From a virus, in IMG/VR virus record IMGVR_UViG_3300020477_000037, positions 1 through 52,535 of that record: a stretch of 52,535 bases of DNA; one strand, written 5' to 3'. Under the pieces are notes generated by a model. It saw only the letters and a program-made list of their open reading frames with translations. It was not told the DNA's origin and made no database searches. Shown here in pieces: positions 13,631 to 17,492 of this stretch (position 1 is the stretch's first letter; every line of letters begins with the position of its first letter). The position numbers and the translations under genes were made by a program.

Positions 13631-13858
13631 ATGAATAGCAATAAGTTTAAAGAATATATAACAAATAAAAATTCTTTAATAAAAAGCTATAAGAATTTTC
13701 TTAATGTTATAGCGGATTGTTATTGTCATGAAGATATTATCCCAGATGAAAAAATTCGGACACATCTCCATGTTATAAACACAATGCATTTAAATGCGAG
13801 ACAAGTGGATATAATGGGTGATATAATAAGGAGTGAATTAAAGCCGGAGTTAAACTGA
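13631..13858 (+). CDS. Small hypothetical protein before the terminase nuclease gene
   Basis: Seventy-five residues from ATG 13631, which has GGAG six bases upstream; an in-frame ATG at 13616 overlaps the giant gene's stop. It is helical and Asn/Lys-rich, with a C-H pair (DCYCHED) too sparse for a zinc-site call. Its TGA overlaps the ATG of the terminase nuclease gene by one base, so the two are probably translationally coupled. No family recognised. Confidence 0.5.
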   Translation: MNSNKFKEYITNKNSLIKSYKNFLNVIADCYCHEDIIPDEKIRTHLHVINTMHLNARQVDIMGDIIRSELKPELN

Positions 13859-14721
13859 TGCGTGGGATTGTAGATAAACATACTCCAGATGGAATTAGAA
13901 TTTGGCAAATACATTATACGGCAGATCCAGATAAAGACCCAGAGACAAAAGAAGGTGGAGAGTGGTTAGCTAATGAGCTAATGGGATATCCGGGTGGGAT
14001 GGCTTCTCCTAAATGGAAACAGGAGATGGAGGTTGACTTTGACTCTGTAAGTGGACAGCTATTATTCCCAAGGATGGAGGAGTGGAAAGATAAGCTGATG
14101 ATCCCACGATTCGATGTGCCGGATAGCTGGACTTTGTATGGCGGATTTGACTACGCTAGTCGTGGTGTATCCGCCTTCGTTGTTTTCGCCAAAGGAAAGA
14201 ATACAGATGACTATTATGCTATCTGGGAATTCTATGAAAAAAATAGCGGATATTTAAATACGATTAATGCTATCAAATCCTGTCCTTATTATGATAAGTT
14301 GGAATGGATTGTTGCAGACCCGCAGATATGGGCTTCTAATCAGCAAAAACAGGGGTCTGATGAGATGGTTAGTATCGCCCAATTGTTTGGGGAACAAGGG
14401 GTTCACTTCTTAAAAGGATCAAAGGGTGGTGACATTGCCGTAGGTGAAAGAGTTAATCAAGAGCTATGGAATTTTCAGGAGAATGAAGTTCCTAAGTTCA
14501 GGTTATTTGATAACTGCGATAAACTCTGGTGGGAGATGACAAGATTAAGATTTTCTGATTGGAGAAATTCTACGGCTCTCTCAAGGAACGCTAAAGAGTC
14601 TCTTATAGAAAAAGATAATCATGCTTGGGATTGCTTTAAGTACTTTCTGAGAATGATAGAAACAAATTGGATGAGTAGTAATATAGATTCATTTAATCCA
14701 TCTCAGCATATTATTGGATAG
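13858..14721 (+). CDS. Large terminase, nuclease half (separate gene)
   Basis: A 287-residue protein matching only the C-terminal half of a large terminase. It starts at the interdomain linker (IHYTADPDKDPET, GYPGGMASPKWKQEMEVDF) and continues into an RNase H-like nuclease with acidic residues D98 (GGFDYAS), D154 (VADPQ) and D263/D268 (KDNHAWDCFKYF). It would cut the concatemer during headful packaging. The ATPase half is a different gene 2 kb downstream (16764-17492), so the order is inverted relative to a normal terL. The start is a clean ATG coupled to the gene before it, and the frame is intact, so this looks like a working gene. The two halves add to 529 residues, a normal terL length. 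Confidence 0.85.
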   Translation: MRGIVDKHTPDGIRIWQIHYTADPDKDPETKEGGEWLANELMGYPGGMASPKWKQEMEVDFDSVSGQLLFPRMEEWKDKLMIPRFDVPDSWTLYGGFDYASRGVSAFVVFAKGKNTDDYYAIWEFYEKNSGYLNTINAIKSCPYYDKLEWIVADPQIWASNQQKQGSDEMVSIAQLFGEQGVHFLKGSKGGDIAVGERVNQELWNFQENEVPKFRLFDNCDKLWWEMTRLRFSDWRNSTALSRNAKESLIEKDNHAWDCFKYFLRMIETNWMSSNIDSFNPSQHIIG

Positions 14722-14733
14722 GAGATTTTATGA

Positions 14734-15066
14734 ATGGAAAATGTTTCGACTCTTATTTCAGACCTAGGAGTACCAATTACGGTAGCTTTAATGGCGGGGG
14801 CAGGTCTGTGGTTTACAGTAAAATGGCTGATGAATATTCTAATGAAGCGGTTAGACGAGTTGGAGCAGATCAGTCGAGACACCGCAGAAGAAACATTGAG
14901 ATCTATCCAAAAGGAAGAATCAGATTCAAAAGAAATACTGGTAAGATTAATAGATAGAATAAGGGCATTACAAACAGATGTTATTAGAATTGATACAATG
15001 TTTAGAATTAAATATAAGCTACCAATCGATGAACGCAGAATCTCTAGAAATCAGAAAGAGGATTAG
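14734..15066 (+). CDS. Holin-like membrane protein with coiled coil, 110 aa
   Basis: One hydrophobic segment (about residues 9-33, LGVPITVALMAGAGLWFTVK) is followed by a long charged helix (residues 36-85, RLDELEQISRDTAEETLRSI) and a basic tail. This topology is widespread in small phage proteins called holins or holin-like. AGGAG lies nine bases upstream; an out-of-frame ATG at 14730 uses the same site but gives an implausible basic peptide. The stop codon TAG overlaps the first two bases of the tRNA gene. Confidence 0.6.
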   Translation: MENVSTLISDLGVPITVALMAGAGLWFTVKWLMNILMKRLDELEQISRDTAEETLRSIQKEESDSKEILVRLIDRIRALQTDVIRIDTMFRIKYKLPIDERRISRNQKED

Positions 15067-15136
15067 CGGGGTAGAGCAATGGTAGCTCATCGGGTTCATT
15101 ACCCGAAGGTAGGGGGTTCGATTCCCTCCCCCGCAA
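15065..15136 (+). tRNA. tRNA-Met (CAT) with initiator-type identity elements
   Basis: A full cloverleaf can be drawn. Acceptor arm 15065-15071 pairs with 15129-15135, leaving 1:72 as an unpaired A:A. D stem GAGC/GCTC has A11:U24. The anticodon stem has three consecutive G:C pairs above loop TTCATTA, with anticodon CAT at 15097-15099. The T arm has loop TTCGATT, and the discriminator is A. An unpaired 1:72, A11:U24 and the GGG/CCC anticodon stem are the three classic hallmarks of bacterial initiator tRNA; an elongator Met tRNA lacks them. CCA is not encoded (CCT follows), so it needs host CCA addition. It sits between the two terminase halves. Confidence 0.9.
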
Positions 15137-15159
15137 CCTCTGATGAGTATAAAAATTGG

Positions 15160-15312
15160 GTGTATAAATATAATTCCTGTGATTGTTTAGCTAAAACAGA
15201 GTGTATATATGAAGGTTATTCATCGTGTAGAAGGGAATATCTTCAGGAAGAAATACCAGATTGGTATTGTGACCACCCATTTTATAAGGAACAATTAAAA
15301 AGATGGAAATAA
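15160..15312 (+). CDS. Small Cys-containing hypothetical protein, start uncertain
   Basis: The frame is open from inside the tRNA (ATG 15079) to 15312, but translation through the tRNA is unlikely to be meaningful, so I start at the first in-frame GTG after it (15160); no good ribosome site decides this. The resulting 50 residues contain five Cys (SCDCLAKTEC, YSSCRRE, WYCDHP), which could bind a metal. It overlaps the next gene by ten bases. Reality is moderately supported by the overlap and Cys pattern only. Confidence 0.35.
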   Translation: MYKYNSCDCLAKTECIYEGYSSCRREYLQEEIPDWYCDHPFYKEQLKRWK

Positions 15313-15896
15313 TTACTAAGGATGCGGGTGGTAATCAATTCATAGCTGTTACAGAATATAAACCATGCCGGAAATTAACAGCCTGTTTATATCTAGGTAA
15401 CGATGAGTTCCCTAGATCTTATGTAGTGGTAGCATCAGAAATACCACATACCAGACGGGCTATTATTAATGGGCAGGAGAGTGAGTCCCATGACCCTGAG
15501 TATGTAGTCTTTGATGAATTTTCAGGAAGGCTTTCTCCTTATTTTATAGATGAATTGAAGCGATTTCTAGGAAGGAATTATGTCGAGAAAGTTATCTGTA
15601 TATCTTCCAATGAAGACCTAAGAACAAAGATTAGAAGAGAATGTAATATAAAACCAATATATATCGAGAATAAGAAACGAGATGATTGTGCTGTTATATT
15701 GCAAGATTGGTTTAAGAGATTAAGAGATAATGGAGAACCCACATTAAAGATAAGAGAGAATTGTATAGAGGCTAGGAGTTTCAACTATTTACCAGCTAGG
15801 CTTTCTGTGGTATATTTACTTGAGTACTTTGAAAGACAAAGAGGTAAGAAAGTATTTCTTCCAAAGGTACAAAAATTAAGAGGCGGATATTCATAA
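15303..15896 (+). CDS. Hypothetical protein, 197 aa, between terminase halves
   Basis: A soluble, mixed alpha/beta protein with strand-like stretches (SYVVVASEI, YVVFDEFSG, EKVICISSN, KPIYIENKK) alternating with helices, suggesting a Rossmann-like or RNase H-like fold, but no motif is decisive. Residues 120-140 (KKRDDCAVILQDWFKRLRDN) resemble a helix following a strand in such folds. Its last base overlaps the ATG of the next small gene. I do not recognise a family. Its position in the packaging region makes a packaging accessory role possible, with no direct evidence. Confidence 0.6.
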   Translation: MEIITKDAGGNQFIAVTEYKPCRKLTACLYLGNDEFPRSYVVVASEIPHTRRAIINGQESESHDPEYVVFDEFSGRLSPYFIDELKRFLGRNYVEKVICISSNEDLRTKIRRECNIKPIYIENKKRDDCAVILQDWFKRLRDNGEPTLKIRENCIEARSFNYLPARLSVVYLLEYFERQRGKKVFLPKVQKLRGGYS

Positions 15897-16014: not shown

Positions 16015-16305
16015 ATGGATGACATAGAAAATATAGTTGTAAAAATAAAAAGTGCTGAAGAAAAACTAGGTCAACTTGTTCCAAAAAACTTTTTCAGTTG
16101 GGAAATTTACATGGTTAATAATACTGAAGTATTGAGAGATGTTCTTGACCTCGTTAGATCGACAGCAAATATAATCAGGAAATGTGCTTGTACTGAATGT
16201 AATATTGTCTTTCAAAGTCACCACGCACTACAACGCCACATGACCTCCAATCATAAGGAATCGAGCGATGAAAGGGTTAACAGAAAAACAGGAAAAGTTC
16301 ATTGA
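16015..16305 (+). CDS. Protein with a classical C2H2 zinc finger, upstream of the small terminase
   Basis: Ninety-six residues. After a helical N-terminal domain, residues 59-80 (CTECNIVFQSHHALQRHMTS, then NH) fit the eukaryotic consensus exactly: C59-x2-C62-x3-F66-x5-L72-x2-H75-x4-H80, including both hydrophobic core positions. Such a finger binds zinc and usually DNA, RNA or protein. It overlaps the small terminase gene by 38 bases, so a role in recognising packaging DNA or regulating packaging genes is plausible but inferred. A prokaryotic Ros/MucR finger would have shorter C-H spacing. Confidence 0.7.
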   Translation: MDDIENIVVKIKSAEEKLGQLVPKNFFSWEIYMVNNTEVLRDVLDLVRSTANIIRKCACTECNIVFQSHHALQRHMTSNHKESSDERVNRKTGKVH

Positions 16306-16885
16306 TGAATACCTTAAAACCCCAGATGATAAGTCGGGTAGTGCTAAACGTGCGGGTTTTTCTCATCCAGAAGTTACGGCAAATAAATTACTACGCACCG
16401 ATAAAATTATTAAGGCTATAAAAGAAAAGCAGAGCAAGATATCAGAGGCAGAGGGGGTAACGGCAGATTGGTTAGCGAAATATTATAAAGCAATTATAGA
16501 AACACCAATTACAAACATATGTGATTGGGATAAAGTCAGCGGGTTAAATACAAGACCATCATCTCAGATAGACCAGATGTCTGCCTTTGCTATTAAGGAA
16601 GCATCGGAGGGAAGACCTAGAGAAGGTGAAGACCGTAAAGTTTTTCTAAAGATGGAAAGCAAATTAGAAGCAATGTCGGCCTTACGCAGTATGTTGGGAA
16701 TAGATGCACCGAAACGGCAAGAGGTTAAGGCTACTACTGAAACTTACAATATGACGGGTACTAATGAAGAAATCGCAAGCTCCCTCATTGGAACGCTTGA
16801 GAGCCTTATTACAAAATCCGATTATACAGGGGAAAATTTCGGAGTTACCTCATCAGGAAATCCTGAAAATAGAAAGACAAATTAG
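16268..16885 (+). CDS. Small terminase subunit
   Basis: A 205-residue protein beginning LTEKQEKFIDEYLKTPDDKS, then a helix-turn-helix (SAKRAGFSHPEVTANKLLRT, residues 24-43), the typical small-terminase DNA-binding start. The central region (SKISEAEGVTADWLAKYYKA) would be the oligomerisation part. It recognises the packaging site and recruits the large subunit. It overlaps the zinc-finger gene in front and, by 122 bases, the terminase ATPase gene behind. The disordered C-terminus (NMTGTNEEIASS onward) coincides with that overlap. Confidence 0.75.
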   Translation: MKGLTEKQEKFIDEYLKTPDDKSGSAKRAGFSHPEVTANKLLRTDKIIKAIKEKQSKISEAEGVTADWLAKYYKAIIETPITNICDWDKVSGLNTRPSSQIDQMSAFAIKEASEGRPREGEDRKVFLKMESKLEAMSALRSMLGIDAPKRQEVKATTETYNMTGTNEEIASSLIGTLESLITKSDYTGENFGVTSSGNPENRKTN

Positions 16886-17492
16886 CCTACTGTCTTTCAG
16901 GGAATCTCCTGAGAACTTTATATTTTCTGGGGTTCTATTAACTCGTGATGAAAGAGATCCTGACAGCCCAGTAAAAGCATTTTGTGATAAGGACTATTTA
17001 AAAGCTACACTAAAAGCGATTCATGAGTCAAAGATAATTTTTATCCCCAAGTCTAGACAGGTTCAATGCACTTGGTTGGTATGTGCTTATTGTTTATGGC
17101 TTGGGATGTTCCGTCCCCACCAAATGATATTCGTACAGAGTAAGAAGGAAGAAGACTCTGCCAACCTCGTATTCAACCAGAAGTGGACTAAAGGAAGAAT
17201 CTCTTTTATGTACCATCATCTTCCTGATTGGCTTAAAGTTGCCTGTCCGGCTGAAGGAGCTTACGCTAAACTCAATTTCGACAATGGCTCCATGATTTGG
17301 GGAGTGCCGGAGGGTGGAGATGTTGTCCGGCAATATACTGTCAGCCTACTCTTTGCTGATGAGGCAGGGTTTCAGCCTGAGTTTGAGAACGCCTACCAAA
17401 GTTGTAAACCTATGAGCCAAAAGATTGTAGCTGTAAGCTCTGCTTGCAGTAGTACTTACTTTGCACAGATTGTTCAATCTGCAAATGAGTAA
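16764..17492 (+). CDS. Large terminase, ATPase half (separate gene, ends before the nuclease domain)
   Basis: A 242-residue protein with only the N-terminal motor domain. It has an atypical Walker A (PKSRQVQCTW, 95-104; the usual G-K is Q-C, with the conserved KSRQ lysine kept), QSKKEEDSANLVF, Walker B SLLFADEAGF (194-203) and coupling motif AVSSACSS (223-230). It then stops exactly where the linker to the nuclease would begin; that linker opens the separate gene at 13858. It powers DNA translocation into the head through the portal. The assigned ATG lies deep in the small terminase gene and lacks a clear ribosome site, so the true start could be a later TTG. A terminator follows within 100 bases, so nothing is missing downstream. 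Confidence 0.85.
   Translation: MKKSQAPSLERLRALLQNPIIQGKISELPHQEILKIERQISLLSFRESPENFIFSGVLLTRDERDPDSPVKAFCDKDYLKATLKAIHESKIIFIPKSRQVQCTWLVCAYCLWLGMFRPHQMIFVQSKKEEDSANLVFNQKWTKGRISFMYHHLPDWLKVACPAEGAYAKLNFDNGSMIWGVPEGGDVVRQYTVSLLFADEAGFQPEFENAYQSCKPMSQKIVAVSSACSSTYFAQIVQSANE

What the first reader, a model, noticed from the sequence alone, without database searches (positions are those of the whole stretch)
15065..15136. Phage-encoded tRNA with initiator (fMet) identity elements
The CAT tRNA has an unpaired 1:72 (A:A), A11:U24 and three G:C pairs in the anticodon stem, the features that define bacterial initiator tRNA and separate it from elongator Met or Ile2 tRNAs. Phage tRNA genes usually serve elongation; an initiator would raise or reprogram translation start capacity or replace a degraded host tRNA. 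It begins inside the stop codon of a holin-like gene and lies between the terminase halves.
Basis: partly seen in the sequence, partly recalled or inferred. Interest (0 to 1): 0.75.

Follow-up and report, generated by a model that had tools for sequence, protein, structure and literature searches.

The report
Phage start-codon tRNA with altered loop
This virus of bacteria carries, as its only tRNA gene, a version of the tRNA that starts every protein, with one anticodon-loop base (U37) that I found repeatedly in phage copies but in none of the bacterial genomes checked, so phages appear to run a modified protein-start tRNA of their own.

Summary
A 72-nt tRNA-CAU lies at 15065-15136, and three covariance models that I built score it as initiator (75.9 bits) over elongator Met (51.9) and Ile2 (47.8). 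It has A1:A72 unpaired, G2:C71, C3:G70, G4:C69, A11:U24, GGG:CCC and A73.

All 115 matching initiators in 120 Pseudomonadota genomes have A37, and no tRNA with another base 37 turned up in 695 bacterial genomes. The same search in viral contigs gives 24 U37 and 15 G37 initiators, against at least 120 with A37. The initiator is the only tRNA in 15 of 18 whole U37 contigs. In 11 of 15 classifiable U37 lineages it sits in packaging, head or tail genes, as here. These phages have different terminase and capsid families. A relative lacks it at the same site.

Best explanation: an extra initiator made with late genes, whose loop change escapes host initiator-cutting nucleases. The first step is well supported; the second is inferred. 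Pairing of U37 with A just before AUG was tested and is only suggestive: U37 phages differ from A37 phages (p=0.003) but not from random viral contigs (p=0.11).

The parts
15065..15136 (+). Initiator-type tRNA gene (anticodon CAU 15097-15099), 72 nt to A73; no CCA encoded
15100..15100 (+). Base 37 = U, directly 3' of the anticodon; A in all 115 host initiators matched
15064..15066 (+). TAG stop of the upstream small membrane-protein gene; its A and G are tRNA bases 1 and 2, so RNase P cleavage would remove the stop
   Evidence: overlap seen directly; consequence inferred
13858..14721 (+). Terminase large subunit, nuclease half
   Evidence: phrog_5653, E 4e-4; GFDYA motif
14734..15066 (+). Small holin-like membrane protein (110 aa)
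   Evidence: phrog_18771, unknown function; one hydrophobic segment
15079..15312 (+). Open frame that continues the frame of 14734-15066 through the tRNA into a Cys-rich tail; doubtful as a gene
15303..15896 (+). Gene of unknown function; directly follows the terminase nuclease gene in relative L003
   Evidence: 40% identity
16268..16885 (+). Terminase small subunit
   Evidence: phrog_51, E 1e-19
16764..17492 (+). Terminase large subunit, ATPase half
   Evidence: phrog_5989, E 6e-13; LLFADEAGF motif

Best explanation
The gene makes a working bacterial-type initiator tRNA for the phage. It is read through with the late (packaging) genes, cut out of that transcript by host RNase P and 3' nucleases, given CCA by the host enzyme, charged by host MetRS, formylated by host transformylase and used by IF2 to start phage proteins when initiation demand peaks. 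The change A37 to U, recurrent in phage initiators and absent from the hosts checked, most likely keeps this initiator usable when the host's own is cut in the anticodon loop by a VapC-type nuclease or a similar defence. Shown: the gene, its initiator identity elements, U37, its late-gene position and its recurrence. Inferred: expression, processing, charging, formylation, use, and nuclease escape.
For: Initiator model beats elongator Met by 24 bits and Ile2 by 28. The known formylation determinants are present: no 1:72 pair and A11:U24 (PMC4611024), plus G2:C71, C3:G70 and G4:C69 (own knowledge). 1:72 was not part of the search pattern, yet 102 of 131 distinct phage initiators have a mismatch there and only 4 a G-C pair, so the identity is kept while the sequences diverge. 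Base 37: 115/115 A in 120 Pseudomonadota genomes; no tRNA with another base 37 in 398+148+149 genomes; 24 U and 15 G in viral contigs. U37 tRNAs sit among packaging, head or tail genes in 11 of 15 classifiable lineages with different terminase and capsid families. The initiator is the only tRNA in 15 of 18 whole U37 contigs. Relative L003 has the flanking genes but no tRNA. Precedent: phage tRNAs with anticodon-loop changes are predicted to escape host anticodon nucleases, and VapC of enteric bacteria cuts tRNA-fMet (PMC10264068; PMC12482277).
Against: No expression or biochemical data. The host is unknown, so no VapC or other nuclease can be assigned. At least 120 viral initiators keep A37, so the change is not needed for whatever most of them do. 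PMC10264068 reports that the phages it examined mostly avoid encoding tRNA-fMet where VapC-LT2 is present. U37 removes the A37.G29-C41 base triple of free initiator tRNA (PMC4611024) and could weaken P-site use. Late-gene position was not compared with a background rate.
Confidence: 0.5

Rival explanations
1. U37 retunes start-site choice: it pairs with an A just before AUG (AAUG), as host A37 is thought to pair with U at -1, so that phage late genes are favoured.
For: In the window, late-strand starts have A at -1 in 15/23 against 7/27 on the early strand, p=0.01. With the window left out, U37 phages have A rather than T at -1 in 79/115 starts on the tRNA strand against 258/487 in A37-initiator phages, contig-permutation p=0.003, and no excess on the other strand. 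Two contigs with the same tRNA carry an inserted U instead (loop CUCAUUAA).
Against: Against random viral contigs the excess is not significant (170/281, p=0.11). Position -3 shows a similar excess (p=0.005) and G37 phages a smaller one (p=0.04), which pairing does not predict. G+C-rich U37 phages show none.
Confidence: 0.15
2. Plain dose effect: the phage adds initiator to raise initiation capacity, and base 37 drifts freely because a minor extra copy is under weak constraint.
For: Most viral initiators keep A37 and many are lone genes too. U37 and G37 are scattered on the tRNA tree (16 and 12 changes).
Against: No C37 among the non-A37 tRNAs. The 1:72 mismatch stays put, which is odd for drift; A38 and the stems also stay, but the search required them.
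Confidence: 0.25
3. The tRNA is a decoy or a processing signal in the late mRNA and is not used for initiation.
For: The overlap with a stop codon means processing would cut the upstream mRNA.
Against: A decoy or cut site needs neither the 1:72 mismatch nor the transformylase elements, which are kept in divergent copies.
Confidence: 0.08
4. It is an integration-site remnant or captured host tRNA with no role.
For: One U37 contig has an integrase next to the tRNA (L071).
Against: No host tRNA with U37 was found, identity to the host initiators compared is about 80-82%, and most classifiable U37 copies lie in structural gene blocks. No integrase was seen among the window ORFs scanned, though not all were scanned.
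Confidence: 0.04

Closest known systems
Bacterial initiator tRNA-fMet (E. coli type)
   Same: CAU anticodon, no 1:72 pair, G2:C71, C3:G70, G4:C69, A11:U24, three G:C pairs in the anticodon stem, A73
   Different: U37 instead of A37, A1:A72 instead of C1:A72, A15 and A48, no encoded CCA; about 80% identical
Phage-encoded initiator tRNAs (for example Erythrobacter phage R6L, Xanthomonas phage DoCa5, Caulobacter phage CcrSC)
   Same: Initiator-like tRNA in a phage; lone in the stretch read and next to the large terminase gene in R6L, ZS04 and DoCa5
   Different: R6L, ZS04 and DoCa5 keep A37; CcrSC was not read base by base
Phage tRNAs proposed to evade anticodon nucleases (van den Berg et al. 2023, PMC10264068)
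   Same: Changes in the anticodon loop relative to the host tRNA
   Different: The main data set there is large tRNA sets of mycobacteriophages; here it is a lone initiator, and tRNA-fMet was reported as generally avoided where VapC-LT2 is present

Membership tests
Bacterial initiator tRNA | No Watson-Crick 1:72 pair | tested here: met
   A1:A72
Bacterial initiator tRNA | Three G:C pairs 29-31:39-41 | tested here: met
   GGG:CCC
Bacterial initiator tRNA | A11:U24 (purine 11, pyrimidine 24) | tested here: met
   elongators fetched have C11:G24
Bacterial initiator tRNA | Scores best with an initiator model | tested here: met
   75.9 against 51.9 and 47.8 bits
Bacterial initiator tRNA | A37 (base triple with G29-C41 in free tRNA); invariant in hosts checked, but not one of the elements that set initiator identity | tested here: not met
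   U37; hosts 115/115 A37
Bacterial initiator tRNA | Formylation and IF2-dependent P-site entry | not testable with these tools
   needs biochemistry
Elongator tRNA-Met or lysidine tRNA-Ile2 | Paired 1:72 and pyrimidine 11:purine 24 | tested here: not met
Nuclease-evading phage tRNAs | Loop change that blocks a nuclease of the host | not testable with these tools
   loop change seen; host and nuclease unknown

The most novel reading that the evidence does not exclude
Phages have repeatedly evolved an initiator tRNA with U37 that changes which start sites the ribosome prefers (AAUG over UAUG), making late translation partly independent of the host initiator.
Probability: 0.12. Interest if true: 0.88.

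Novelty: new variant of a known kind. Interest (0 to 1): 0.6.

Why it matters
Why phages carry tRNAs is a long-standing question, and an initiator tRNA cannot be explained by codon usage inside genes. Lone initiators placed among late genes in unrelated phages give a clean case for testing supply, nuclease escape and start-site retuning. Pyrimidine 37 is very rare in tRNAs in general (own knowledge), so a natural series of U37 initiators would also test what base 37 and its base triple do in initiation.

Tried and rejected
A first survey pattern had one base too many between A38 and CCC. It matched only G28:C42 stems or 8-nt loops, so its '0 tRNAs among 38 hits in 84,980 genomes' is not a valid host count and is not used; one search exposed this and replace it. 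The exact 15-mer CGGGTTCATTACCCG mostly hits chance sites. The AAUG idea looked strong in the window but weakened with controls. One origin for U37 is not rejected by the short tRNA alignment (AU p=0.14), so independent origins rest on differing phage genes, and transfer of the tRNA between phages remains possible. An elongator search pattern failed once through a spacing error and was redone. The VapC paper itself (PMC3088637) is not held, so its cleavage site was not checked.

Full report
What is there. The window (an IMG/VR virus record, 52,535 bases) holds one tRNA gene, at 15065-15136. Read 5' to 3' its parts are AGCGGGG UA GAGC AAUGGUA GCUC A UCGGG UUCAUUA CCCGA AGGUA GGGGG UUCGAUU CCCUC CCCCGCA A. 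Bases 1 and 72 are A and A, 11:24 is A:U, 29-31:39-41 is GGG:CCC, the discriminator is A, and no CCA is encoded. It folds well (z -3.6).

Class. I built three covariance models from Pseudomonadota genomes: initiator (14 sequences), elongator Met (8) and Ile2 (7). The window tRNA scores 75.9, 51.9 and 47.8 bits; the nine other phage U37 tRNAs tested also score best as initiators. The models rate true elongators the other way, so they separate the classes.

The overlooked base. The loop is UUCAUUA, so base 37 (15100) is U. In initiators A37 forms a triple with G29-C41 in the free tRNA and stacks on the anticodon in the P site (PMC4611024). With a pattern for the initiator D stem, GGG:CCC and any base 37, 73 of 120 Pseudomonadota genomes give 115 matches, all A37. 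With A excluded, 398 Pseudomonadota genomes and 149 genomes of a Clostridia phylum give none, and 148 of a Bacteroidales phylum give one site; that site was already shown not to be a tRNA (L102). In viral contigs the same pattern gives 39 stretches, 38 of them tRNA-like; with the window they are 24 U37, 15 G37 and no C37. A related oddity is an initiator with an 8-nt loop CUCAUUAA in two contigs with the same tRNA.

Setting. The tRNA lies between the two halves of a split large terminase: nuclease part 13858-14721, ATPase part 16764-17492 with the small subunit before it. Its first two bases complete the TAG stop of a small holin-like gene, so 5' processing would strip that mRNA of its stop (inference). 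A relative, L003, has the terminase nuclease gene followed directly by the homolog of 15303-15896 (40% identity), with neither holin-like gene nor tRNA: the tRNA is optional cargo. The phage is far from known ones (best portal match 26% identity).

Other phages. U37 initiators lie among packaging, head or tail genes in the window, L073, L075, L077, L174, L178, L180, L185, L190, L195 and L202, and elsewhere in L071, L176, L198 and L199; four more could not be classed. The terminase and capsid families differ (phrog_38, 6681, 2; phrog_267, 422, 10, 4523). Whole-contig counts show the initiator as the only tRNA in 15 of 18 U37 contigs. Named isolates show the same plan with A37: DoCa5, R6L and ZS04 carry a lone initiator just downstream of the large terminase gene, where the records annotate no tRNA. 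No background rate for late-gene position was measured.

Function. The kept 1:72 mismatch (102 of 131 distinct sequences, not part of the search pattern) argues that these tRNAs are used as initiators. Why base 37 changes is open. Escape from an initiator-cutting nuclease has precedent in kind (PMC10264068) but no host or nuclease is known here. Pairing of U37 with A at -1 was tested. The window's late starts favour A at -1 (15/23 against 7/27 early). Excluding the window, U37 phages exceed A37 phages (79/115 against 258/487, p=0.003) on the tRNA strand only. But position -3 and G37 phages also shift, and random viral contigs are not different (p=0.11). I treat it as suggestive only.

Limits. 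Starts were called by a simple Shine-Dalgarno rule. The survey covers one D-stem and anticodon-stem type. The tRNA tree cannot exclude a single origin of U37 (AU p=0.14). Nothing here shows expression.

Noticed in passing
window 13858-14721 and 16268-17492: The large terminase is split and permuted: the nuclease half is a separate gene upstream of the small subunit and the ATPase half. L003 has the same nuclease gene followed further on by the small subunit.
   Followed up: partly
window 15079-15312: The frame of the holin-like gene stays open through the whole tRNA into a Cys-rich stretch, interrupted only by the TAG made with tRNA bases 1 and 2.
   Followed up: partly
L074 and L076: Phage initiator with an 8-nt anticodon loop CUCAUUAA, read by ARAGORN as a four-base anticodon catt; L086 has another 8-nt loop, CUCAUAAC.
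   Followed up: no
L126, L127, L128, L130: Initiator-like tRNA genes in Xanthomonas phage DoCa5, Erythrobacter phages R6L and ZS04 and Clavibacter phage CN1A carry no tRNA annotation in their records.
   Followed up: partly
L033 and L075: Bases 15 and 48 appear to be U and A instead of the usual G and C, a possible compensated Levitt pair; the window has A and A.
   Followed up: no
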